Shown: positions 6,620-28,892 of the stretch, piece by piece
Position numbering within the stretch: position 1 is the first letter of the stretch
How the letters are laid out: the number at the start of each line of letters is the position of its first letter
Source of the DNA: Microbacterium oxydans
Lineage (GTDB): Bacteria > Actinomycetota > Actinomycetes > Actinomycetales > Microbacteriaceae
Reading direction: 5' to 3'
Length of the DNA stretch: 64,000 nt
Assembly (NCBI RefSeq): GCF_006540085.1
Contig: NZ_BJOG01000004.1
Coordinates: 434,001 to 498,000, forward strand
The notes under the pieces: generated by a model
What the model was told of the DNA's origin: nothing
Database searches by the model: none
What the model saw: the letters and a program-made list of their open reading frames with translations, nothing else
Program-made: the position numbers and the translations under genes

Positions 6620-7774
6620 ATGAAGAGTCTCAGGCACGCCGTTACGCTCCTTGTCCCCGCGCTGTTCGCCTTCGGGGCAGCGTTCGCTCTCGTCGTGTTC
6701 GCGGTCGCCCGACGGGTCGTCACCCCGATGCGCCGACCCACCGATACACAGATCCTCGCGGTCGACACCGGTGCGCAGACCATCGAACTGCAGCGCACTC
6801 CCGACACCGAGCTCCCCGGGCGCTACGGCCTGTTCACGACAGGGACGTACGGCTACGTCAAGCTCGGTGCGGTGCTCAGCGCAGACGCCACGACCGTTCG
6901 ACGCAAGCTGCTCACGCAGATCGAACCCGGTGCGCGCGTGGATCGTGCTGCGGCATTCAGCGGCTACTACTACTCCACTCCGAGCGAGCTGCACCTGCAG
7001 TGGGAGAACCTTCTGATCGGCTCTCCCGCCGGCCCGTGTCCGGCCTGGTACTTCCCCGGGTCGTCGTCGACCTGGGTGATCCAGGTGCACGGCCGAGGAG
7101 CGACACGGGCGGAGTGCCTGCGCGCCGTGCCGGTCATGCACGCGGCGGGCCTTCCGACCCTGGTGGTGTCCTACCGCAACGATGGTGAGGCTCCCCGAAC
7201 CAGGGCCGGTGCGTATGCGCTCGGGGCATCGGAGTGGCGTGACGTCGATGCCGCCATCGCGTACGCACTCCGACACGGAGCAGAGCGGGTCATCCTGATG
7301 GGCTGGTCGATGGGGGGAGCGGTCTCGCTGCAGGCCGCGGTGAGTTCGGGTCACAGAGACCGCATCGCGGGGATCATCCTCGAGTCCCCTGTCGTCGACT
7401 GGCGCACGGTGCTGCGGTTCCAGGCGAAGCTTGCCGGGGTGCGGCCGCCCTTGCCCGAGCTGGCCATGGGGGCGCTGCAGACGCCTCTCACCGCGCGCCT
7501 CAGCGGCGCAGACGAGCCGATCCACTTCGATCGCCTGGACATGGTCGCCCGAGCGGACGAACTGACCGCACCGATCCTGATCCTGCACAGCGACGACGAC
7601 GGCTTCGTGCCCGCGGATTCGTCCCATGCCCTTCAGAATGCGCGCCCCGACCTCGTGACCATGCCGAAGTTCACGGTCGCCCGTCACACGAAGCTGTGGA
7701 ACTACGACCAGACCGGATGGACCACGGCCATCACGGACTGGCTCGAAGCCACGGGTTTCAGCGCTTCTGCATGA
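6620..7774 (+). CDS. membrane-anchored alpha/beta hydrolase
   Basis: This 384-residue protein has one N-terminal hydrophobic segment (about 8-32), probably an uncleaved anchor that places the catalytic domain outside the membrane. The alpha/beta hydrolase core has the nucleophile elbow GWSMGGAVS, a candidate acid in ILHSDDDGFVP and a candidate His in VARHTKLWN, a complete Ser-Asp-His triad in the right order. It resembles prolyl-oligopeptidase-type esterases. The substrate is unknown. It converges on the SufE-like gene with a 17-base overlap. Confidence 0.8.
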   Translation: MKSLRHAVTLLVPALFAFGAAFALVVFAVARRVVTPMRRPTDTQILAVDTGAQTIELQRTPDTELPGRYGLFTTGTYGYVKLGAVLSADATTVRRKLLTQIEPGARVDRAAAFSGYYYSTPSELHLQWENLLIGSPAGPCPAWYFPGSSSTWVIQVHGRGATRAECLRAVPVMHAAGLPTLVVSYRNDGEAPRTRAGAYALGASEWRDVDAAIAYALRHGAERVILMGWSMGGAVSLQAAVSSGHRDRIAGIILESPVVDWRTVLRFQAKLAGVRPPLPELAMGALQTPLTARLSGADEPIHFDRLDMVARADELTAPILILHSDDDGFVPADSSHALQNARPDLVTMPKFTVARHTKLWNYDQTGWTTAITDWLEATGFSASA

Positions 7775-8198
7775 CCTGGTTCTTCGCCCGCATCAGCATC
7801 CCGGTCATGCCTCCGATCCGCAGCGGCGACACCGCTTTCGTGAGGCCGATCGACTGCGGGTAGTCGTTCGGGATGGCGAGAACCTCGTCGGCGGTGAGAC
7901 CGGTGAGCCCCTGCACCAGGATGCTGGCGAACCCGCGGGTGGTCGGCGCCTCCGGAGGTGCCGTCGCATGCATGGTGACGATGTCGTCCTGCACCTCGAC
8001 GTGGATGTACACAGGGGACTGGCACTCCGCGACCCGCTCGTACATCTCGGGATGCGCCGCGACCGCGTCCGAGACGTCCGGGAGCTCGTCCGAGAACTCG
8101 AGCAGCAGGAGGAGCCGATCCGACTCCGGGGTCTCCAGGAATCCCTCGCGGATCTCGGCAAGGGTGTCAGGAACGTCGCTCGTGCTCATCCCTGTCAT
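7758..8198 (-). CDS. sufE: SufE-family Fe-S assembly sulfur acceptor
   Basis: This 146-residue protein begins with the SufE-type N-terminus (LAEIREGFLETPESDRLLLL). The conserved sulfur-accepting Cys is in RVAECQSPVYIHV (C59), followed by a GFASILVQGLTGL helix. SufE takes persulfide sulfur from a cysteine desulfurase for iron-sulfur cluster assembly. Candidate starts are GTG 8204, ATG 8198 and ATG 8189; none has a strong ribosome site, and 8198 is a compromise. It lies directly downstream of the rhodanese-type sulfurtransferase gene, so the pair probably works on the same sulfur pool. Confidence 0.87.
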   Translation of the reverse strand: MTGMSTSDVPDTLAEIREGFLETPESDRLLLLLEFSDELPDVSDAVAAHPEMYERVAECQSPVYIHVEVQDDIVTMHATAPPEAPTTRGFASILVQGLTGLTADEVLAIPNDYPQSIGLTKAVSPLRIGGMTGMLMRAKNQVMQKR

Positions 8199-8208
8199 TG
8201 TCACACGC

Positions 8209-9102
8209 TCAGACGGTACCCGGCTCTGAGCCCGTGACGATCGGCACGCGCACTGCGCTTCCCCACTCCGTCCAGGAACCGTCGTAGTTGCGGACGTTCT
8301 CGAACCCGAGGAGGTGCTTGAGCACGAACCAGGTGTGGCTCGACCGCTCACCGATACGGCAGTAGGCGACGACGTCGTCGCCGTCATTCAGGCCGGCGCC
8401 GTCACGGTAGATCACGTCGAGCTCGGCCCGGGGGCGGAATCCGCCGTCTTCCGCGACCGCCTTCGCCCACGGAACGCTCTGCGCGGTGGGGATGTGTCCC
8501 GCCCGCAGCGTCCCCTCCTCGGGGTATGCGGGTGCCGTGGTGCGCTCACCGGAGTACTCCTCGGGGGAGCGCACATCGATCAGAGGGCTGCCGATGTGGG
8601 CCAGGACGTCTTCCTTGTACGCGCGGATCACGGAGTCGTCGCGCTCGACCACGGGGTACTCCGTAGCCGGCCGGGAGGTCGCCTCCCGGGTGAGTTCCCG
8701 TCCTTCGGCGATCCAGCGGTCACGTCCGCCGTCGAGCAGGCGTACGTCTTCGTGGCCGAACAGCGAGAACACCCAGAGGGCGTAGGCGGCCCACCAGTTG
8801 TTCTTGTCGCCGTAGATGACGACCGTGTCGTCGCGGGCGATGCCCTTGCGGCTGAGCAGTTCGGCGAAGCCCTCGCCGTCGACGTAGTCACGCACCACCG
8901 GGTCGTTGAGCTCGGTGTGCCAGTCGACCTTCACCGCTCCAGGGATGTGGCCGGTCTCGTAGAGCAGGACGTCTTCATCGGATTCGACCACCACGAGGCC
9001 GGGGGTTCCCAGCCGTTCCGCGAGCCACTGCGTGGTCACCAGGCGGCCGGGCTCGGCGTACTCGGCGAACTTGGGGGAGGAGGAATCGAACTCGATGGCC
9101 AT
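8209..9102 (-). CDS. sulfurtransferase (two rhodanese domains, thiosulfate type)
   Basis: This 297-residue protein has two rhodanese domains. The first is inactive-like ([16 protein letters not shown]). The second carries the active Cys in [14 protein letters not shown] (C248), the loop typical of actinobacterial CysA/SseA thiosulfate sulfurtransferases. It moves sulfane sulfur from thiosulfate or mercaptopyruvate to acceptors. The ATG at 9102 was chosen because the protein then begins just before the family N-terminus; the frame stays open upstream without similarity. It is the first gene of an operon with sufE and is divergent from zapE. Confidence 0.9.
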
Positions 9103-19455: not shown

Positions 19456-19527
19456 GCGCGATTGGCGCAGCGGTAGCGCGCTTCCCTGACACGGAAGAGG
19501 TCACTGGTTCGATCCCAGTATCGCGCA
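19456..19527 (+). tRNA. tRNA-Val(GAC), integration target
   Basis: A 72-base cloverleaf with acceptor GCGCGAT/ATCGCGC and anticodon arm CTTCC-CTGACAC-GGAAG gives GAC. Its last 25 bases are the left copy of the 29-base att repeat, so the integrated element restores the tRNA 3' end and the gene stays intact. Confidence 0.95.
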
Positions 19528-19531
19528 CAGA
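19503..19531. other. left attachment site (29-base direct repeat)
   Basis: The T-arm and acceptor end of tRNA-Val(GAC) plus four bases are repeated exactly at 28864-28892. Identity ends after base 19531, where the two downstream sequences diverge. Confidence 0.92.
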
Positions 19532-19618: not shown

Positions 19619-20494
19619 TCAGAACACTTCGACGTGCTCCACGTCGATCAGCGGAGCGTCCCGCGGCCCCGCGGTGTGAGGCTCGATCCAGACGACTTCG
19701 TGCGTCTTCGTGGACGGGTGCCATTGACGTCGGCTGTGACCGCGCACGGTCCATCGATGGTCGGGAGTGCGCCTCGCGGTCGCCGGGCCTCGGCTCTCAC
19801 CTTCGCCGGTCGGACGGTAGACCATGACGACATCCGGTCGGCCCCGCACGGTCGCGCCCGAACGCTCGTTAGGAGTAGTGCGGGCGGAGCGCGCCGCGCC
19901 GAGGTCACGGGTGCGGGCCGACGCCAGCCGATGGAGCAACCGGGGTGCGTCGCGGTCGAGAGCGCTGACCGGATGCACCCGCACGTTCGGGGCGGCGAGT
20001 GAGAGCGCGCGCCACGTCGGCACCGCGCATTCTCCGCCCGCCCACATCAGTAGTTGCTCGGTGTCGGCGAGGTACGCAACGCCGGAATCGCTCGGAGGGA
20101 GCGCGTCGGGTCGCGTGGGCTCATCGAACTCGCCGAGTGCGTCGGCGCGGAGGTAGAAGAATCGTCGCCCGGCGGTCGCGTCTTTCAGTAGGCGGAACAT
20201 GCGCGCTGACGGTGCGGCGCTCGCAAGGAGAGTCGTCGCGGCGTCGAGGTTCCTGGGCATGGCGCGCGGCGTCCATTCGAGTCGCGACAGGTCGCCGAGA
20301 GCCGACGAGTGGAGCGTGATTAGGAACGATTCGCCCTCGCGTGCCCAGCGCTGACGAATGCGCCGCGCCACGGGCACCTGAATGGTGGACGACGGAGACT
20401 TCACGAACTCGCCATCGGAGCGGAGGAACTTCAACAGCACTTTGCTGTCGATGCCGAGTTCGTGAGCCACTTCGTGCACGCGCGGTTTGCCCAT
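19619..20494 (-). CDS. IF2-N-domain protein of mobile element
   Basis: This 291-residue protein begins with a domain like the N-terminal module of initiation factor IF-2 ([20 protein letters not shown], then [10 protein letters not shown] and PVARRIR), residues 4-50. The rest is not recognised as a catalytic fold. The C-terminus has a basic, aromatic segment ([15 protein letters not shown] then VVWIEPH) of a kind seen in actinobacterial plasmid and phage proteins of unknown role. ATG 20494 was chosen; a GTG three codons upstream is possible. It is the last gene of the leftward cassette, ten bases after the WhiB-like gene. Confidence 0.68.
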
Positions 20495-20504
20495 GCCGCG
20501 CACT

Positions 20505-20753
20505 CTATCGGGCTCGGAGACGCACGCCGCCGAACGTGCCGACGAGGCCGGATACGCGTCCGTAGTCGCCGCATGCTTCGCGGACGGCGAGCGGGCAGGC
20601 CGCGCACGTGCTCGGGCGGACGGTCGCGGGGTCGAGGCCATCGCACGGGACACGCTCGCCGCGTTCGGTGGCGCGGAGGAGGGCGATGCCGAGCGTCCGG
20701 GCTTCGTCGTTCCCGCGGTACGTGGAGAGGCGCGGTTCGCTCGGGTCGCCCAC
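20505..20753 (-). CDS. WhiB-like protein
   Basis: This 82-residue protein has four Cys (37, 50, 53, 61) and a C-terminal [11 protein letters not shown] that corresponds to the G-[VI]-W-G-G turn of Wbl regulators. Wbl proteins bind a 4Fe-4S cluster and regulate transcription with the sigma factor. The last Cys pair is separated by seven residues (CPLAVREAC) rather than the usual five, so cluster ligation needs care. The GTG at 20753 lies four bases past the upstream stop. Wbl genes are frequent on actinophages and integrative elements. Confidence 0.7.
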
Positions 20754-20757
20754 GGGC

Positions 20758-21687
20758 TCAGTAGTCCGCCCGTGCGAGGAGCATCCGCAGGCCGTCGAGG
20801 TCGAGATGCGCCCACGGTTCCGTGTTCGGGTGCTCGTGGCCTGAGACGGCCCAGCCGTGCACGCCGTCGAGGTCGGGCTCGTGCGGCACGCGGCGGCGCA
20901 TCGCACGGTCGCCGTCGATGAGGTCGAGCACCGCGGAGGACATCGAGTCGCCGAACTCGCGGGCGCGTTCGCATGTCGGGCAGAGGTGCGCTTGCATCGG
21001 GCGTCCGACGCCGCCGAGGCTCACCGGGCTCAGATCGTGCGGCGTCCACGGCTTCGCGGTGCGCTTCGCCAGGACAGTGCCGAGCCCGCACCACGCACAG
21101 CCGCCGGTCGGGCAGGCAACGGGGCGAGGCGGCATGCGGTCGGCGAGGTGGTCACCGTACTCGTGGCGAATGTCCGCGAGGAGGTCCGGGCTCACATGGA
21201 GCCACGGCTCTACGGCGGCTGTCCCGCGGCGTGCGTCCTCCTCCCGAACGGGCGCGAACCGCCGGTGCCAGGATGCGGCGGCTCCGCGCGAGGAGAGCCG
21301 GTTGAGGAGCGAGAGGAGGCCGTCGGCGCTGTACGTCGCGGCGGGCGTCGCGCCGATGGCGGCGAGCGCTCGGAAGGCCGAGGCGATGCGGTGCTGTCCG
21401 ATACTCGGTGAGCCGATCATGCGGCGGATGCTGGGGTGCGTGTCCAGAGTGCGGGCGGCGTGTGCATCGAGGTCGGCGCACGCGGGGCACTGTCCGAACG
21501 TGACTTCGGACAGTCCTTCGATCAGCCGCCCGCGGGGGTCCATCCTCCCGGTGACGGTGAACGTCGTCCGGGGCGCGTCGGGGCCGCACGGGGTGCCGCA
21601 GTCCTTGCATGCGATGTGTTCGGCGTCGGGCAGGTGGCGGATGCCGAGGGGGAGGGGGCGGGTGTCGGGCTTGGTGGTCGTGGTCAT
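20758..21687 (-). CDS. multi-CxxC zinc-binding protein, unknown
   Basis: This 309-residue protein is not recognised. Three zinc-binding groups are visible: ACKDCGTPC near residue 27 with [11 protein letters not shown] near 67; CPTGGCAWC near 192; and [11 protein letters not shown] near 236. Between them is an alpha-helical part ([20 protein letters not shown] and [12 protein letters not shown]). Such architecture suits nucleic-acid binding. It lies 12 bases after the previous gene and ends four bases before the WhiB-like start, so it belongs to the cassette. Confidence 0.6.
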
Positions 21688-21699
21688 GGTGGGGCTCTC

Positions 21700-21960
21700 T
21701 CAGAATCGGCGGAGTTCGTCGGGGGTTAGGTCTTGCCAGCCGAGGGTGCGGGGCGCTTTGGGCTCGGGTGGCGTCTCGGCGGGTTTCGGTGCGGGGGGCG
21801 GCGTAGGTGCGGCGGCGCGGCGGCGGGCGGCGCGGGCTCGCTTCGCTTCGGCCTCACGCTCCGCGCGCTCTTGCTCGGCGCGGCGCTCCGCGGCGGCGGC
21901 GAGTTCGGCGCGGAGAAGCGCATGCGACCACGATTCGCCGCGGTACCGACGCTCAGGCAT
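21700..21960 (-). CDS. small coiled-coil protein, unknown
   Basis: This 86-residue protein has an Ala/Glu/Arg-rich helix (about 15-50, LLRAELAAAAERRAEQERAE and onward) that should form a coiled coil, then a Pro-rich linker and a short C-terminal GWQDLTPDELRRF. No domain is recognised. ATG 21960 gives an eight-base overlap with the upstream gene; the frame is open further back but that part reads as an out-of-frame shadow. Confidence 0.5.
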   Translation of the reverse strand: MPERRYRGESWSHALLRAELAAAAERRAEQERAEREAEAKRARAARRRAAAPTPPPAPKPAETPPEPKAPRTLGWQDLTPDELRRF

Positions 21961-22303
21961 GGCGGGGCCGTCGGTCGAGGCGGTCGCCGCACACGGCGTG
22001 CGCGCCGCGGAAGCAGTACGCGCCGGGGGCGGCGTGATGCTCGGGGCACGAGATGGCGAGGGCGGCGGGCATGACCGCGCTTCGGCTGAGTTCGCTCGCG
22101 AGCCTCGCGACGGCGGCGGCGTCCGGCGTGCGGTCGTGTCCGAGGTCGAGGGCCGCGAGGCTTCGGCTCTTGCCCTGGTATCGGCCTGACACGATTTCGC
22201 GGTACGCCGTTTCGGTCTGGTCGCGGCGGTCGTCGGAGATGTGGCCGGGGTGGCGGGCGAGGTGGATGCGCTCACGGTCGTTGTCAGCGGTGCGGTGGCT
22301 CAT
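21953..22303 (-). CDS. small zinc-finger protein, unknown
   Basis: This 116-residue protein starts with a polar helical region (NDRERIHLARHPGHISDD) and ends with CPEHHAAPGAYCFRGAHAVC, a Cys/His spacing like the small phage-type zinc fingers (CPxC/H...PGxxC...C/H). The function is unknown. Its ATG overlaps the stop of the upstream gene (TGATG). Confidence 0.55.
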   Translation of the reverse strand: MSHRTADNDRERIHLARHPGHISDDRRDQTETAYREIVSGRYQGKSRSLAALDLGHDRTPDAAAVARLASELSRSAVMPAALAISCPEHHAAPGAYCFRGAHAVCGDRLDRRPRHA

Positions 22304-22644
22304 GGTCGGCTCCAGTCGTAGGCGGTGTGGTTCTCGGGGATCGTGGCGAGGGCATCGGCATGTGCTTCGGCGGCAAGGAGTTCGGCGGCGGCGGTGAGGC
22401 CGGGCACGGCGCGCTCACGGGTCGCCTGGGCGCCGAGCGTCGGCGTTGTCGGTGGTTGGGTGTACACGTTCATGCCGGTGATCGGTCGGGCGGAACGGCG
22501 GGCCTCGGCGAGTGCCAGGCGTTCGCGAACGTCGGCGACGTGAGCCACGCGGGCGGCGGCACGGTCGGCGGCGACGCGCTCCGCGGTCACGACACGCGCC
22601 CGTGCCTCGCGCTCGGCGAGGGTCGGCGGTGTGCGACGGGTCAT
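22300..22644 (-). CDS. Ala/Arg-rich helical protein, unknown
   Basis: This 114-residue, mostly helical protein has residues 10-60 rich in Ala, Arg and Glu, likely a coiled coil. The C-terminal part carries LTAAAELLAAEAHADAL. There are no catalytic motifs. The ATG at 22644 overlaps the preceding stop (ATGA); ATG 22650 two codons upstream is an alternative. Confidence 0.5.
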   Translation of the reverse strand: MTRRTPPTLAEREARARVVTAERVAADRAAARVAHVADVRERLALAEARRSARPITGMNVYTQPPTTPTLGAQATRERAVPGLTAAAELLAAEAHADALATIPENHTAYDWSRP

Positions 22645-22898
22645 CGCCATGACAGTCCCCATGACGACACGGGCCGGTGAGCGCGCACGAGTTCTTCGAG
22701 CGCCGCCTGCGCGAGGGCGCGGCGTTCCTCGGGCGTGGCACCGGGTGGGTACGGCGATGGCGTGTCGATGCCCAGCCTCTCGCGCTTTGCTTTCAGGGCG
22801 GCGAGCGCGGTTAGGGCTTCTTCGACGCTCCCGTGAGGGCGCGTCGGGATGCCGAGGGCGGCGCGGATACGTTCGGGGTCCATGCTCGGGCGGATCAT
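22641..22898 (-). CDS. 85-residue helical protein, unknown
   Basis: The protein starts MDPERIRAALGIPTR after a short MIRPS leader and carries two amphipathic helices (VEEALTALAALKAKRERLGI and TPEERRALAQAALEELVRAH). No family is recognised. Its ATG overlaps the upstream stop (TGATG) and its stop overlaps the next start, so it is inside the coupled cassette. Confidence 0.55.
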   Translation of the reverse strand: MIRPSMDPERIRAALGIPTRPHGSVEEALTALAALKAKRERLGIDTPSPYPPGATPEERRALAQAALEELVRAHRPVSSWGLSWR

Positions 22899-23389
22899 CA
22901 GACGCCCAGCCGTTCGCGCTCGGGTGTGCTCAGCAGGCCGATGCCGCCCGCCCTAACCGCGGCAATTATCGCCGCCGCCGAACGGGGTGTGAGGCCGAGG
23001 CCGTCACGGAGCCGTTCTGCGGTGCGCTCTGCGGCAGTGTGCGCCGCGAGCAGGGACGCGCGCGGCTGTCCACGGTCTGTGAACGGCGACGCGGCGTCGA
23101 TTCGTTCGCGGATGAGTTGCGCCACGGCCTCGGCGGTTGCCCAGGATGTCAGCGCCACGGCGAACCGGTCTAGCGCGAGTTCGGGAGCGGCGTCGACGGC
23201 ACGCTGTGCGAGGTCGCGGGCGAGCGTGGCGACGGCACCAGATTGCACCGGCGGATCGCTCGGGGCTGACTCGGGTTCGGGCTTCGGGCGGGAGCGACGC
23301 GCCGCGGAGTCACACTCGCGGCATCCGTGCCGCCCGCGCTTCGTGACGTACACGGCATTGTCGGGGTGACCGCACGGCGTAGCGCTCAT
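22898..23389 (-). CDS. phage-type zinc-ribbon protein, unknown
   Basis: This 163-residue protein has an N-terminal zinc ribbon: TPCGHPDNAVYV followed by GRHGCRECDSAARR (residues 5-30), a pattern common in actinophage early proteins. The remainder is helical and contains GLTPRSAAAIIAAVRAGG, which could be a helix-turn-helix. ATG 23389 overlaps the stop of the 41-residue gene (ATGA). The frame is open well upstream, but that part is Arg/Pro-rich shadow sequence. Confidence 0.58.
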   Translation of the reverse strand: MSATPCGHPDNAVYVTKRGRHGCRECDSAARRSRPKPEPESAPSDPPVQSGAVATLARDLAQRAVDAAPELALDRFAVALTSWATAEAVAQLIRERIDAASPFTDRGQPRASLLAAHTAAERTAERLRDGLGLTPRSAAAIIAAVRAGGIGLLSTPERERLGV

Positions 23390-23511
23390 CGGGCACCGCC
23401 TCGCGCGGGCGTGTGTACGCGAGCGTGCACGCGCATAATGCGCGCAGGCGTGCGTGCGGGCACGGCGACGACGCCGAGAGGGCGCGGCACGGGGTGGGGC
23501 GTGTGGGTCAT
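23386..23511 (-). CDS. 41-residue basic peptide, translationally coupled
   Basis: This small frame has ATGA overlaps at both ends: its ATG overlaps the stop of the upstream 228-residue gene and its TGA overlaps the ATG of the downstream zinc-ribbon gene. The product begins MTHTPHPVPRPLGVV and continues with an Arg/Val/Ala-rich segment containing RIMRVHARVHTPAR. No family is recognised. The double overlap argues that it is translated, at least as a coupling peptide. Confidence 0.5.
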   Translation of the reverse strand: MTHTPHPVPRPLGVVAVPARTPARIMRVHARVHTPARGGAR

Positions 23512-24194
23512 GACATCTCCCAGTGGGTCGGGTCGGTCGGGTCGAGGGTGAATAGGGCGGGCGGCTGGGGTTCGGGTGCCGTCGGCGGGGGAGCGGGTGC
23601 GCGGCGGCGCTTCGGGATCGGGGAGAGCGCGAGGTGTGCGACGGCTCGGCGGGCTTCGGCGTGCTCGCGGTCATCGAGGGCGGCGCATCGGCTACAGGCG
23701 GGCCGATAGTCGTCAGGGTTCAGCGAGTACCACGCGGGAGCGGCGGAGCCGGAGACGCCGCGGATGCGGTCGCCGGGCGGGGCGATGCATGACCACACGC
23801 GAGCCCGACGGCCACAGCGCCAGCAGGCGCGTGCAGAGGCCGGCCCGCGCTGGCGGCGGATGCGGGCGTGCAGGGCGAGGTATCCGGGCTGAGCGAGGCT
23901 GTAGCGCGTCGCGAGGGTGACCACGCCGAGGAATGCCGCCGGATTAAGGCGCGGCGGGGCCGTCTGCGAGCGAACGGAGCCGGGGTGCGGTAGTTGGCCG
24001 TCTGAGGAGTTCAGGCCGTCAGAGAGCCGTACAGCGCTTCGAGGCTCGGCGGGCGCGAGGGCTCGCGACGCTCGCACTGTTGCACGGGCGTTGCATGAAT
24101 CGGCCTCGGCGAGCGCCACGCTGCCAACGGATGCGGAATCACGCGGCAAAATCGGCCCGCCGTCGCTGGTATCAAGCCAGTAGCGCGCGCTCAT
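23508..24194 (-). CDS. zinc-ribbon protein, unknown
   Basis: This 228-residue protein has a low-complexity N-terminal half. The C-terminal half contains ACWRCGRRARVWSC (about 120-133) and PACSRCAALDDREH (about 168-181), probably two zinc knuckles, and ends FTLDPTDPTHWEMS. The ATG overlaps the stop of the ART-phosphatase gene by one base (TAATG). The function is not recognised; close coupling to the fusion protein gene makes it a candidate partner. Confidence 0.55.
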   Translation of the reverse strand: MSARYWLDTSDGGPILPRDSASVGSVALAEADSCNARATVRASRALAPAEPRSAVRLSDGLNSSDGQLPHPGSVRSQTAPPRLNPAAFLGVVTLATRYSLAQPGYLALHARIRRQRGPASARACWRCGRRARVWSCIAPPGDRIRGVSGSAAPAWYSLNPDDYRPACSRCAALDDREHAEARRAVAHLALSPIPKRRRAPAPPPTAPEPQPPALFTLDPTDPTHWEMS

Positions 24195-25153
24195 TATGCC
24201 GCCTCGGAGGTGAGCGCGGCGCGGGCCTCGGCGCAGACTTCGCCGCACACGTCCACGATGAGCCGGTAGGCGTCCTCTTGCACGTCGTCGGAGCGCCGCC
24301 ACGGGTTCGGCACGGGGCGCGGCATCACGAGTGCATCCGTGCCCTTGAACACGAGACGCACGATGCCCGCCGCGAACGGGTCGAGCGGCACGACGCAATC
24401 GGCGTTGCGGTCGTCCATCGTCAGGCGGCGGGCGAAGTGCGCGGAGCCGTCGAGGCCGTGCCGCTCCGCCGTGGCGAGCGTGCCGGGGTCCATCGGGTCG
24501 CCGTGCATCGCTGAGACGCCCACGGAAGCCGCTTCGACGTTCAGGCCGTGCTCAGCCGCCATGTCGCGCAACACGAGTTCGGCCAGCGGCGAGCGGCAGA
24601 TGTTCCCGACGCACACGAACAGCACGCGCCAGGGACGCCCGACGACCGGCGGCGTGTGCAGGCGCTCCGCGCCCTCGGGCACATCCACGATGTACTCACC
24701 GCCGGGCGAGAACGGCCCAGCAGGGACGCGCCCGAGCATCCATCCCGGCTCGGCGTCGACCACGTAGAGGCGCGCCCGGTCCCGGTCGTACCGCGCGCCA
24801 AAGAATCGGGCGTCGTTCGGCGCGGTCGTCCAACTCAGCCCGCGGCTGTACTCGGGCACCGCGCCGCGGTAGAGCGTCAGCGTCTCGGTCGGGATCGCCT
24901 CGGGGGCACATGCGCCGCCGTAGAGGTATCCGACTTCGCGGAACAGCCGCACCCATTCGTCGCGGGGGAGTTCGCGCAGGGGCCAGCCGTCCGGCCCGGC
25001 GCCCTTCGCCCACGACACGCTGAGGATGGCGGCGAGCACGTCGAGCGAGATGCCAGTGCGGTGCCGGTCGGCGAACAGGCCGGGCAGGTCGGCGGGCGGG
25101 TGCGGGTTTCGCCCTTCCTCCCGCATGAGCATCATCCAGTCGTACGGATTCAT
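24194..25153 (-). CDS. ADP-ribosyltransferase-like / low-molecular-weight phosphatase-like fusion
   Basis: This 319-residue protein has two recognisable parts. Residues about 88-165 look like an ADP-ribosyltransferase fold of the R-S-E type: LTLYRGAVP (R96), GLSWTT (S107-T110), an ARFFGARY helix and GGEYIVDVP (E153). Residues 174-319 resemble a low-molecular-weight tyrosine phosphatase: VLFVCVGNICRSPLAE gives the C-x5-R loop (C181-R187), followed by the SVGVSAMHGDPMDP and ARRLTMDD segments. The general-acid loop, normally DP, reads VPNPW (N283), so catalysis may be weak or changed. The N-terminal 85 residues are unassigned. ATG 25153 overlaps the upstream stop (TGATG). Domain calls rest on motif reading only. 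Confidence 0.7.
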   Translation of the reverse strand: MNPYDWMMLMREEGRNPHPPADLPGLFADRHRTGISLDVLAAILSVSWAKGAGPDGWPLRELPRDEWVRLFREVGYLYGGACAPEAIPTETLTLYRGAVPEYSRGLSWTTAPNDARFFGARYDRDRARLYVVDAEPGWMLGRVPAGPFSPGGEYIVDVPEGAERLHTPPVVGRPWRVLFVCVGNICRSPLAELVLRDMAAEHGLNVEAASVGVSAMHGDPMDPGTLATAERHGLDGSAHFARRLTMDDRNADCVVPLDPFAAGIVRLVFKGTDALVMPRPVPNPWRRSDDVQEDAYRLIVDVCGEVCAEARAALTSEAA

Positions 25154-25530
25154 GCGGCCCTCCAGTCGATGCGATGACGAACAGCGGTTCGGACCTCTCC
25201 GCCCGCGCCGCGCGCGCGTACCCGGGTCGCCTGACGGGGCCGGGTAGTGATGGTGGATGCTGGGAGTTCGGCAGGGGTCATAGAGGCCAACCGCAGGGAG
25301 CGGAGCGACCGGAGGGCGGCAGTCCCGATGCGGGAGCCGAGCGGCAGGGAGCCGCCGACAATCTCGCCGGGTCGCGTCGTCGGGAATGGTGCGGCGGCTG
25401 GGTCGCGAGGTGCCTCGGAGAGGCGTCCGCCGAGCGGTAGCGAGGTGGTCGCCTCTAGGTGGCGCAGAAAGTGCGCCACCAGTCGGGAGTAAGGGACGCG
25501 GGTCGTTCTTGCCCTCTCGGCGCGGGTCAT
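25150..25530 (-). CDS. 126-residue protein, unknown, repeat-bearing gene
   Basis: The frame starts at an ATGA overlap with the upstream gene and ends in a TGATG overlap with the ART-phosphatase gene, which supports its reality. The product is Arg/Pro/Leu-rich without a recognised domain. The DNA underneath is rich in short inverted repeats and carries one of two near-identical hairpins (25458-25480), and another long frame is also open here. It may therefore be mostly a structured DNA or RNA region rather than a conserved protein. Confidence 0.4.
   Translation of the reverse strand: MTRAERARTTRVPYSRLVAHFLRHLEATTSLPLGGRLSEAPRDPAAAPFPTTRPGEIVGGSLPLGSRIGTAALRSLRSLRLASMTPAELPASTITTRPRQATRVRARGAGGEVRTAVRHRIDWRAA
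25458..25480. repeat. hairpin repeat copy 1
   Basis: Nine-base arms (25458-25466 and 25472-25480) enclose GAAAG. A near-identical copy with one base changed lies 103 bases to the right. It could be a transcript hairpin, replication or transfer site. Confidence 0.6.
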
Positions 25531-26021
25531 CGCATTGCCTCGCGTTCCCAGTCGGCGACAGGTGGCGCGGAAAGTGCGCCACCTAGCGTGTATCCCTCGG
25601 GCACGGTCACCTCGGGCTCGCACTCGGGCGTCTCGCACGGCCTCAGGACGGCGTACCGGAGGCCGCGGGGGAGCACGGGCGCGGGGATGCCCGTGAGCCT
25701 CAGGCAGTAGTACAGGACATGCCGCCTCGCGCCGCCCTGGGAGCGTGCTTCGAGCCGGTCGAGCACGCCGAGCGCGGCCCATGCTTTCAGCGCTCGCTCT
25801 GCCGTGTCGGTGGCCGGTGCGCCGCGTCGGGCTCCCTTCGTCACACGGAGCCGGGCGGCGTCGGCGAGGTCGAACGCATCCGCCCAGCAGAATCCGTCCG
25901 GGCCGATCCGGTCGAGCACGGCGCGGAGCACTCGGAGCGCTGACGTGTGGACGCTCACGCCGTCATCGTCTGCGAGGGCGAGGAGCAGGCCGTCTATCGC
26001 CTCTCGCGTGGGGATCGCCAC
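25527..26021 (-). CDS. winged-helix-like protein, unknown
   Basis: This 164-residue helical protein contains LLALADDDGVSVHTSALRVL and FDLADAARLRV, then RALKAWAALGVLDRLEARSQ and GGARRHVLYYCL, which together read like a winged helix (helices, a wing of basic residues, a strand). Such folds occur in replication initiators and in regulators of mobile elements. It has a GTG start, four bases after the previous stop. The C-terminus lies over the second hairpin repeat. Confidence 0.55.
   Translation of the reverse strand: MAIPTREAIDGLLLALADDDGVSVHTSALRVLRAVLDRIGPDGFCWADAFDLADAARLRVTKGARRGAPATDTAERALKAWAALGVLDRLEARSQGGARRHVLYYCLRLTGIPAPVLPRGLRYAVLRPCETPECEPEVTVPEGYTLGGALSAPPVADWEREAMR
25560..25584. 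repeat. hairpin repeat copy 2
   Basis: Nine-base arms (25560-25568 and 25576-25584) enclose a seven-base loop. The sequence differs from copy 1 at one base in the shared 23-base unit. Confidence 0.6.
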
Positions 26022-26228: not shown

Positions 26229-26432
26229 TCAGCCCTCGCTCTCCGCGCCGTTGCGCACGGGGCGCGCCCAGCGGTCGAGGTCGGCGATGCGCACGCGCAG
26301 ATCGCCGCGGGAGCCGAGTTTCACGGCGGGTATGTCGCCGCGGTCGATGGCGCGCTTGATCGTCTTGCGGCTCACATCGAACCGGACCGCGGCAGAGGTC
26401 AGGGAGAGATAGACGGGACTCGGCTCAGGCAT
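26229..26432 (-). CDS. excisionase-type helix-turn-helix protein
   Basis: This 67-residue MerR/AlpA-type DNA-binding protein begins YLSLTSAAVRFDVSRKTIKRA, then IDRGDIPAVKLGSRG, and RVRIADLDRWARP forms the wing. Such proteins serve as recombination directionality factors (Xis) or small regulators on integrative elements. It is the first gene of the leftward cassette, about 120 bases downstream of a clear promoter, and may direct excision together with the integrase and perhaps bind the dyad at 26569-26587. Confidence 0.75.
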   Translation of the reverse strand: MPEPSPVYLSLTSAAVRFDVSRKTIKRAIDRGDIPAVKLGSRGDLRVRIADLDRWARPVRNGAESEG

Positions 26433-27434: not shown

Positions 27435-28622
27435 CTACGCCGTCCGGGCCGAGGCGTCGAGAGCTTCGACTAGAGCCGCCTCGCGGCCTGTGCCGTGCGT
27501 GTACCGGAGTGCAATGCCCTCCGATGCTTGCCCGAGCCGGTCGGCCACCTCACGCGACGTAGCGCCCGCGGCGCTGTAGTGGCTCGCGGCGTAGTGGCGG
27601 AGCCCGTGCAACGGCAGATCGGGACGCCCCGCCGCCTCTCGGGCGTTCTTCCAGTGCCGGGCGAACGTCGATTGCCGCAGGTGCGCAACGCCGTCAGCCG
27701 CAGACCACAGCAGGGCGTCGGGGTTCAGCGGCACGCGCTCGGCCATGTGCGACAGCAGGGGCCGGTAGGCGACGGCGGGGAGCGGGACGACGCGCACGCC
27801 CGCGCCCGTCTTGGGCGCGCCGACGATGGCACCGCCGCCGGTCGTGTGCGTCACGCCTCGGGAGACGCGGAGAGCGACGCTGACGACCGCGCCCGCCTCG
27901 CGCGTCACGACGACATCGCCGCGCCGGAGTTCCCGCATCTCGCCGGAGCGCAGGCCGGACCACGCCGCGACGATGACGAACGACCGCAGGCGCTCGGGCA
28001 TCGCGTCGATGATCGCGGCCAGTTGCTCGGGAGTCGGCGGCTTGACCGGCTTTCCGGTCGTCGCGGATGCCGCGCCGCGGATCGGCTCGGGGGCCTCGGC
28101 TAGCAGGCCGCGCGACACGGCGGAGCGGAGCACGGATGACAGTAGGGCGTAGGCGCGGGCCGTCTGCGTGACTTTGCCCGTCGCGAGCGCGGCGGCGTGC
28201 CAGTCCTCAACGGCGGCGCGGTCGATGGCCGACACCGGCGTGTCAGCCAGGGGAGCGAGTGGGCCATCGAGCAGACGACGGTACTCGGCTCGCGTCGTCT
28301 CGCGGATCGGCTTTCCGCTCGCGCTGTAGCGCTTGCTCAGCCAGTCGGTTGCGAACGCGGAGAACGGCAGGGTGCGGCGTTCGGCGTCACGTTCGGCGGC
28401 GGCACGTTCGGCGGCGGCGGCTTGACGGGCGGCGGCGGCGTCCTCCTTGCTCAGCCAGGTACCCGCGGCTATCTCGGCCTGAGTGCGCGAGAGATAGGCG
28501 CGGGCGGCACCCTTCGTCTCAAACGTCGTGGGGCCGGTGTGCCGCACGCCGTCAACGATGAACGATGCTTGCCAGCGCTTCGACGGCAGGCGGCGGAGAG
28601 CGCCCCACGCCTCACGGCTCAT
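27435..28622 (-). CDS. int: tyrosine-type site-specific integrase
   Basis: This 395-residue phage-type integrase has an arm-binding N-terminus (about 1-55), a charged Ala-rich linker, a core-binding SAM-like domain (85-175) and a catalytic domain (195-385). Catalytic residues are R225 (SGLRSGEMREL), K271 (GAPKTGAGV), H339 and R342 (LHGLRHYAAS) and Y374 (ALRYTHG). The usual LGH motif reads LGQAS, so the second catalytic His is Gln365. It catalyses integration into tRNA-Val(GAC). Its ATG overlaps the stop of a short upstream frame (ATGA), which may be only a leader peptide. Confidence 0.92.
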   Translation of the reverse strand: MSREAWGALRRLPSKRWQASFIVDGVRHTGPTTFETKGAARAYLSRTQAEIAAGTWLSKEDAAAARQAAAAERAAAERDAERRTLPFSAFATDWLSKRYSASGKPIRETTRAEYRRLLDGPLAPLADTPVSAIDRAAVEDWHAAALATGKVTQTARAYALLSSVLRSAVSRGLLAEAPEPIRGAASATTGKPVKPPTPEQLAAIIDAMPERLRSFVIVAAWSGLRSGEMRELRRGDVVVTREAGAVVSVALRVSRGVTHTTGGGAIVGAPKTGAGVRVVPLPAVAYRPLLSHMAERVPLNPDALLWSAADGVAHLRQSTFARHWKNAREAAGRPDLPLHGLRHYAASHYSAAGATSREVADRLGQASEGIALRYTHGTGREAALVEALDASARTA

Positions 28623-28863: not shown

Positions 28864-28892
28864 ACTGGTTCGATCCCAGTATCGCGCACAGA
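28864..28892. other. right attachment site (29-base direct repeat)
   Basis: This is an exact copy of 19503-19531, without the rest of the tRNA. It marks the right boundary; chromosomal sequence resumes with the displaced tRNA terminator. Confidence 0.92.

What the first reader, a model, noticed from the sequence alone, without database searches (positions are those of the whole stretch)
24194..25153. ADP-ribosyltransferase-like domain fused to a low-molecular-weight phosphatase-like domain
One protein holds an R-S-E type ART pattern (R96, S107, E153) followed by a C-x5-R phosphatase loop (C181-R187) whose general-acid Asp is replaced by Asn (N283). I know of no described ART-LMW-PTP fusion. 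The placement in a mobile element, coupled to unknown small proteins, suggests host takeover, competitor defence, or self-immunity by a paired modifying and removing activity.
Basis: partly seen in the sequence, partly recalled or inferred. Interest (0 to 1): 0.82.

Follow-up and report, generated by a model that had tools for sequence, protein, structure and literature searches.

The report
ADP-ribosyltransferase fused to tyrosine-phosphatase-like domain
A small mobile genetic element in a bacterium carries one protein that joins an NAD-using ADP-ribosyltransferase-like domain to a phosphatase-like module, a pairing seen again in two other mobile elements that hints at a multi-step way of marking or breaking cell molecules.

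Summary
The 319-aa gene (24194-25153, minus strand) has an N-terminal domain predicted to have the ADP-ribosyltransferase (ART) fold, with R96 and E153 invariant in 20 of 20 aligned sequences, and a C-terminal LMW-PTP domain (Pfam E 1e-18) with an intact C-x5-R loop and Asn at the general-acid position. It lies in a 9.4-kb integrative element at tRNA-Val, one of a phage-satellite-like family whose marker gene occurs in 16 of 365 genomes of the genus. The same fusion occurs in a second genome (48% identity), again with Asn. In a third genome a PTP that groups with these two in the tree, also Asn, is a separate gene overlapping (ATGA) an ART-Nudix fusion gene. So ART and this PTP branch are linked three times, once with a pyrophosphatase-type domain. 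Best explanation: an NAD-dependent effector whose ADP-ribose product is handled by the phosphatase-like module, by dephosphorylation or by docking. The 'modify and remove' idea is not supported: PTP chemistry does not cleave the ADP-ribose glycosidic bond. The fusion is accessory (2 of 19 related places). My paper searches found no ART-LMW-PTP. Activity, target and biological role are untested.

The parts
24194..25153 (-). ART-LMW-PTP fusion gene, 319 aa
   Evidence: ORF and translation; Pfam; second fusion in G142
24668..25153 (-). ART-like domain, residues about 1-162
   Evidence: 20-sequence alignment; models; fold comparison; DNA similarity to the PTP-less relative in G670 ends at 24667
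24245..24625 (-). LMW-PTP domain, residues 177-303
   Evidence: PF01451 E 1.2e-18; genome match C4:458245-458625
24866..24868 (-). codon of R96 (ART first motif)
   Evidence: invariant in 20 of 20
24833..24835 (-). codon of S107 (ART second motif)
   Evidence: Ser in 17, Ala in 3 of 20
24695..24697 (-). codon of E153 (ART third motif)
   Evidence: invariant in 20 of 20; Gln in the G726 relative, which is not in that set
24593..24613 (-). P-loop C181-R187 of the LMW-PTP domain
   Evidence: sequence
24305..24307 (-). codon of N283 in place of the general-acid Asp
19503..19531 (+). att repeat, 29 bp, overlapping the 3' end of tRNA-Val(gac)
   Evidence: exact repeat; tRNA
28864..28892 (+). att repeat, 29 bp, other end of the element
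19456..19528 (+). tRNA-Val(gac), integration site
27435..28622 (-). tyrosine integrase
   Evidence: PF00589 E 6e-13
26229..26432 (-). excisionase-like HTH_17 protein
   Evidence: PF12728 E 2e-10
25527..26021 (-). element gene of unknown function, upstream neighbour
   Evidence: homologue in the G754 element, E 1e-87
23508..24200 (-). Cys-containing element gene, downstream neighbour
   Evidence: phrog_4160 E 1e-11; homologues near the marker gene in G670, G754, G159
22898..23389 (-). element gene of unknown function (terminase-small-subunit-like by eye only)
   Evidence: homologues in G142 and G670; no Pfam or PHROG match
22300..22662 (-). small element gene
   Evidence: homologues in G670, G754, G159
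20758..21687 (-). 309-aa Cys-containing marker protein of the element family
   Evidence: 16 of 365 genomes, 19 places
19619..20560 (-). protein with an IF2_N-like domain
   Evidence: PF04760 E 2.8e-6

Best explanation
It is an NAD+-dependent effector carried as cargo by a phage-satellite-like integrative element. Proposed mechanism: the ART domain takes ADP-ribose from NAD+ and puts it on a target, or releases it, and the LMW-PTP-like domain acts on the phosphate-bearing product. In the G096 version a Nudix domain fused to the ART would first split the ADP-ribose pyrophosphate, and the neighbouring PTP would act on the phosphoribosyl group left behind; in the two fusions that middle step would come from elsewhere or be skipped. 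Shown: ART-like fold prediction with conserved R and E, intact PTP P-loop, the ART-PTP link in three mobile elements, Nudix in one of them. Inferred: catalysis by either domain, the order of steps, the target, and use against phage or host. Because Asn replaces the general acid, slow or binding-only action of the PTP module is a real alternative.
For: ART fold. R and E invariant in 20 of 20. LMW-PTP. Second fusion in G142. In G096 an ART-Nudix gene (NUDIX E 6.1e-16; 34.9 bits with the ART profile) overlaps by ATGA a PTP gene (LMWPc E 1.4e-29). That PTP and the two fused PTPs form one split of the tree (SH-aLRT 94.6, bootstrap 99; the two fused ones 97.2 and 100): tree. The ART half of the G096 gene, searched in 207 genomes of the genus, finds only itself and the ART-PTP fusion of G142 (E 2.2e-4). 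Asn at the acid position in these three only, of 80 aligned PTPs. Window against G670 ART: 72% identity, dN/dS 0.33. Mobile-element setting. Others have proposed that phosphatases and Nudix domains process ADP-ribose products (PMC9503650: abstract, outline, passages and section 3.3.1 seen).
Against: No activity was measured. The general acid is Asn, which should weaken phosphatase action, most of all on sugar phosphates. No strict Nudix box is found in the window or in the 20-kb G142 stretch. The closest ART relative (G670, 72%) has no PTP. The G096 ART half does not find the window's own ART at E <= 0.001. In the PTP tree three other rows lie slightly closer by branch length to the fused PTPs than the G096 one does, and the branches are long. 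VIA Z is only 5-6, and Foldseek finds nothing at E <= 0.001 in PDB. Between the two fusions dN/dS is high (ART 0.85, PTP 0.56). The G726 relative has Gln for E153.
Confidence: 0.4

Rival explanations
1. Reader/trap model: the PTP domain is a pseudo-phosphatase. With Asn for the general acid it binds phosphorylated protein or nucleotide without turning it over well, and so guides or switches the ART domain.
For: C-x5-R loop intact while the acid is Asn in all three ART-linked PTPs; acid-site mutants of PTPs are known substrate traps (recalled, not from a call).
Against: Asn in a three-member branch may reflect a special substrate; no binding data; a separate PTP gene (G096) does not obviously tether an ART.
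Confidence: 0.27
2. RNA-directed model: the ART acts on RNA ends or tRNA, as its nearest solved folds do (Tpt1/KptA), and the Nudix and PTP modules clean up phosphates; the element carries an RNA repair or RNA attack enzyme.
For: The first 15 VIA rows are Tpt1/KptA chains (also first). Stand-alone relatives in the two mycobacteriophages looked at (LeBron, Archie; 2 of 71 records) lie at the edge of a tRNA gene array.
Against: No Tpt1 Pfam match at E <= 1; R-S-E type residues; Z of 5-6 means fold likeness only.
Confidence: 0.15
3. Two independent effectors on one chain: the ART modifies one host or phage target and the PTP dephosphorylates another, joined only for co-expression.
For: Clean domain boundary and ART-only versions; the PTP half is better conserved than the ART half between the two fusions (56% against 40%).
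Against: The same PTP branch is linked to related ARTs three times, once with Nudix.
Confidence: 0.13
4. Degenerate or non-enzymatic cargo kept for binding only.
For: Asn at 283; Gly at 151 where 18 of 20 aligned sequences have Glu; Gln for E153 in G726.
Against: R96, E153, C181 and R187 intact; dN/dS 0.33 between the window and G670 ARTs.
Confidence: 0.05

Closest known systems
ADP-ribosyltransferase superfamily, R-S-E type (T4 Alt/Mod and bacterial ART toxins, recalled examples)
   Same: Predicted ART fold; R in the first strand, Ser (Ala in 3 of 20) in the second motif, Glu in a later strand
   Different: No Pfam or NCBIfam ART model matches; fused to LMW-PTP; the first Glu of the E-x-E seen in 18 of 20 is Gly in the window and Ala in G142
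Tpt1/KptA tRNA 2'-phosphotransferase
   Same: Nearest solved folds: Z 6.1, rmsd 2.4 A over 78 residues, 27% identity with the full-length model; Z up to 5.3 with the domain model
   Different: No Tpt1 profile match at E <= 1; catalytic motif differs (its tetrad is recalled, not tested)
phrog_4776 family, e.g. Mycobacterium phage LeBron gp117
   Same: Same ART-like domain: 18 of 20 aligned members match phrog_4776 at E <= 0.1. LeBron was found by tblastn with the viral relative L113, not with the window domain
   Different: Stand-alone; annotated 'hypothetical protein'; unknown function
LMW-PTP (PF01451)
   Same: Profile match over nearly the whole model, P-loop intact
   Different: General-acid Asp is Asn; fused to or beside an ART
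ARG/Nudix/rhodanese-phosphatase systems and the KptA-Nudix fusion of Bodo saltans virus (PMC9503650, passages seen)
   Same: An NAD/ADP-ribose enzyme coupled to Nudix and a Cys-based phosphatase
   Different: There the coupled enzyme is a glycohydrolase (ARG) with a rhodanese-type phosphatase, or KptA with Nudix; the abbreviation LMW does not occur in the main text (other spellings not searched)
Phage satellites (recalled class)
   Same: Small integrative element at a tRNA gene with integrase and excisionase; the sister element in G754 carries a terminase large subunit and the G096 region a major head protein
   Different: Helper dependence unknown; no capsid or terminase recognised among the window element proteins scanned

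Membership tests
ART superfamily | ART fold | tested here: met
   Predicted model only: pLDDT 76, pTM 0.73. VIA rows headed by ART-superfamily chains, Z up to 5.3 and 6.1; Foldseek best E 0.012 with TM-scores near 0.3-0.4 and unrelated haem-binding chains further down. Moderate scores
ART superfamily | Catalytic Arg and Glu conserved | tested here: met
   R96 and E153 in 20 of 20; against it, Gln for E153 in G726
ART superfamily | Second-motif Ser | tested here: inconclusive
   Ser in the window; Ser in 17, Ala in 3 of 20
ART superfamily | NAD+-dependent transfer or hydrolysis | not testable with these tools
   needs an assay
Tpt1/KptA | Pfam Tpt1 profile match | tested here: not met
   Only LMWPc listed at E <= 1
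Tpt1/KptA | R-H-R-R catalytic tetrad | not tested
   tetrad recalled; no residue-level structural alignment was available
LMW-PTP (PF01451) | Profile match above cut-off | tested here: met
   68.1 bits against 23.2
LMW-PTP (PF01451) | C-x5-R-S phosphate loop | tested here: met
   C181 to R187, S188
LMW-PTP (PF01451) | General-acid Asp in the DP[YW]-like motif | tested here: not met
   Asn in the window and G142; Asp in 74 of 80 rows. A relative by descent; full catalysis is doubtful
Phage satellite | Small integrative element with integrase, excisionase and att repeats | tested here: met
   9.4 kb between 29-bp repeats; integrase and HTH_17 protein
Phage satellite | No complete set of virion genes | tested here: inconclusive
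   No virion family among the window element proteins scanned (10 by Pfam; 7 plus 1 by PHROGs); not every small ORF was scanned
Phage satellite | Mobilised by a helper phage | not testable with these tools
   needs infection experiments

The most novel reading that the evidence does not exclude
The three modules form a sequential machine: ART attaches ADP-ribose to a target, Nudix trims it to phosphoribose, LMW-PTP strips the phosphate, leaving a bare ribosyl mark that macrodomains and ADP-ribosylhydrolases might not recognise: an irreversible modification used by phage satellites.
Probability: 0.1. Interest if true: 0.87.

Novelty: new variant of a known kind. Interest (0 to 1): 0.6.

Why it matters
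LMW-PTPs are studied as tyrosine or arginine phosphatases and arsenate reductases (recalled). A branch of them tied to ART and Nudix domains in mobile elements would point to a role in ADP-ribose chemistry, in a compact system of one or two genes that can be tested directly. It also suggests an ART fold for phrog_4776, a family of unknown function with relatives in actinobacterial phages and plasmids.

Tried and rejected
'Modify and remove' pairing: rejected on chemistry; no macrodomain or glycohydrolase among the 10 element proteins scanned with Pfam. Chance motif: rejected by the second fusion and the predicted fold. Assembly artefact joining two genes: rejected, since the same join exists in G142 and the DNA similarity to the PTP-less G670 gene ends at the ART boundary.

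Searches with nothing, or nothing for the ART half. Full-length protein: 13 phage records, 64 plasmid records and 49 genome-contig loci, the listed ones matching from residue 144 or later, that is the PTP side (30 of 64 plasmid records listed). Window ART domain in phages: none. IMG/VR: none for the fusion, the window ART domain (44) or two stand-alone relatives; 5, 6 and 3 loci with narrower relatives' alignments. ART-Nudix in phages, its ART half in plasmids: none. PDB by sequence: only beta-propeller chains at E >= 0.009 (13), none with the profile. NCBIfam and PADLOC: single-member hits at E >= 0.016. Foldseek with the full-length model: nothing usable, since much of the PTP half was modelled at pLDDT under 50 for want of aligned relatives. 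Viral structures: one hit at E <= 0.001, an uncharacterised Gordonia phage protein; a protein named ADP-ribosyltransferase appears at E 0.52 (106). A G142 counterpart of window 21700-22038 was not found.

Limits. One search scored only 5 candidates per genome and its match list is cut, so fusions could be missed. Genome samples overlap. In one search, 81 rows were aligned; one (L003) is the window protein again, misaligned, and is dropped: of 80, Asp 74, Asn 3, Gly 1 (a short ORF), Glu 1, gap 1. The tree used 77 rows; the support printed was shifted by rooting and was recounted. The PTP set is a sample. One genus hit with in-frame stops (L015) was left out of alignment A1, and 3 of 8 plasmid hits were not used. 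Paper searches for the fusion: (1, 1, 0, 0 papers; neither listed paper was opened). Only PMC9503650 was opened, in part. Most subscription journals are not held.

Full report
The gene. Window 24194-25153, minus strand, encodes 319 aa. Pfam finds LMWPc at residues 177-303 (E 1.2e-18) and nothing else at E <= 1. The window is contig C4 434001-498000 of a 3.89-Mb genome with six PF01451 matches, this one included.

The N-terminal domain. The first 170 residues match 11 of 198 genomes of the genus, 6 of 398 of the family and, with a profile, 6 of 248 of the order, the window's own genome included each time, and 8 plasmid records of Curtobacterium, Streptomyces, Kitasatospora and Gordonia. Twenty sequences align (5 of the 8 plasmid hits used; one genus hit with in-frame stops left out). 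W67, F71, R96, W108, A115 and E153 are invariant. Glu at position 151 is present in 18 of 20; the two exceptions are the window (Gly) and G142 (Ala). G670, not in that set, also has Gly. Eighteen of 20 match phrog_4776, unknown function (E <= 0.1). A viral relative finds 71 phage records, 69 of Mycobacterium and 2 of Gordonia; the 40 listed are annotated 'hypothetical protein'.

Fold. AlphaFold on the domain with seven relatives gives mean pLDDT 76 and pTM 0.73. R96, S107 and E153 fall in strands in the order expected of an R-S-E ART. Foldseek against PDB: best E 0.012, a tRNA 2'-phosphotransferase; none at E <= 0.001; unrelated chains appear from rank 12. VIA: the first 15 rows are Tpt1/KptA, Z 4.6-5.3, then other chains that I recognise as ART superfamily. 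The full-length model gives Z 6.1, 2.4 A over 78 residues, again Tpt1/KptA (at least one row of that list is unrelated). These Z values are middling, but the lists agree with the conserved residues. I take the ART fold as likely (about 0.9) and catalysis as plausible.

The same fusion elsewhere. In a search of 366 genomes of the genus, among the listed matches only G000 and G142 cover both halves. The G142 protein (345 aa, GTG start) is 48% identical; P-loop, R, S, E and the Asn-Pro-Trp motif are shared. The ART half is 40% and the PTP half 56% identical. Two more genomes have close ART domains without PTP: G670 (72%) and G726 (45%, with Gln for E153). No fused PTP was seen in the frames of the family, order and class hits that I translated or whose open frame was too short.

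Asn for Asp. PTP-like ORFs from 81 loci gave 80 usable rows: Asp 74, Asn 3. The three are the window, G142 and a gene in G096. In a 77-row tree the three form a split with SH-aLRT 94.6 and bootstrap 99, and the two fused ones 97.2 and 100. Branches are long, and by branch length three other rows are slightly nearer to the fused pair than the G096 one; in a quicker FastTree run the G096 one was nearest.

The G096 locus. The Asn-type PTP starts at L163 8621 and overlaps by ATGA the stop of a 298-aa gene at 7728-8624. That gene has a NUDIX domain (PF00293, E 6.1e-16) with a complete Nudix box, preceded by an ART-like half that scores 34.9 bits with the 20-sequence profile. That half, searched in 207 genomes of the genus, finds only itself and G142's ART-PTP (E 2.2e-4), not the window's. 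Nearby are a major head protein (phrog_3990, E 4.2e-100), Prim-Pol, an AAA ATPase and a resolvase, so this too looks like a phage-like mobile element. ART and this PTP branch are therefore linked in three elements, once with Nudix.

The element. A 29-bp exact repeat (19503-19531, 28864-28892) frames 9.4 kb at tRNA-Val(gac), with integrase and excisionase-like genes. Its 309-aa marker occurs in 16 of 365 genomes, 19 places. In the stretches fetched around all 19 (10-20 kb each, some cut by contig ends) the ART profile finds an ART in 5 (window, G670, G142, one of three places in G726, G159); the PTP is fused in 2, and no separate PTP ORF was hit. In G754 related integrase, excisionase and neighbour genes occur at the same tRNA, but the DNA similarity breaks between window 24002 and 25388, where the fusion gene sits; that element carries a terminase large subunit (phrog_9, E 1.3e-28). 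The gene sits between different neighbours in the window, G670 and G142 elements. So it is movable cargo of a satellite-like family. Helper dependence is untested.

How it may work. That phosphatases and Nudix domains process ADP-ribose released in ARG systems has been proposed, and a KptA-Nudix fusion occurs in a giant virus (PMC9503650; abstract, outline, passages from two term searches and section 3.3.1 seen). The G096 gene pair fits that logic with an ART as first enzyme. The Asn argues for caution: it should slow hydrolysis, so docking or trapping is the main rival. The Tpt1-like fold, and the tRNA arrays beside two phage relatives (2 of 71 records looked at), keep an RNA target open.

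Verdict. It is a new domain architecture of known parts as far as my searches go, supported by three linked occurrences, with function unproven.

Noticed in passing
L163 7728-9091 (G096): ART-Nudix fusion gene overlapping an Asn-type LMW-PTP gene, near a phage major head protein, Prim-Pol and resolvase genes.
   Followed up: yes
window 20758-21687; 19 places in 16 of 365 genomes: 309-aa marker protein, without a Pfam match, of a satellite-like element family. A second place lies in the window's own genome (G000:C2:61951-62832).
   Followed up: partly
L150 9925-12011 (G754): Sister element at the same tRNA-Val with a terminase large subunit and an HTH protein weakly like a terminase small subunit, but no ART gene.
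   Followed up: partly
L169 2722-3459 and L170 2722-3438 (phages LeBron, Archie): Stand-alone ART-like relatives lie at the edge of phage tRNA gene arrays, within 500 bases of tRNA-Lys(ttt).
   Followed up: partly
L109 8063-8581 (G726): ART relative with Gln in place of the catalytic Glu.
   Followed up: no
window 19619-20560: Element protein with an IF2_N-like domain (PF04760 E 2.8e-6).
   Followed up: no
L108 9470-11035 (G670): A serine recombinase lies beside the related G670 element, where the window element has a tyrosine integrase.
   Followed up: no
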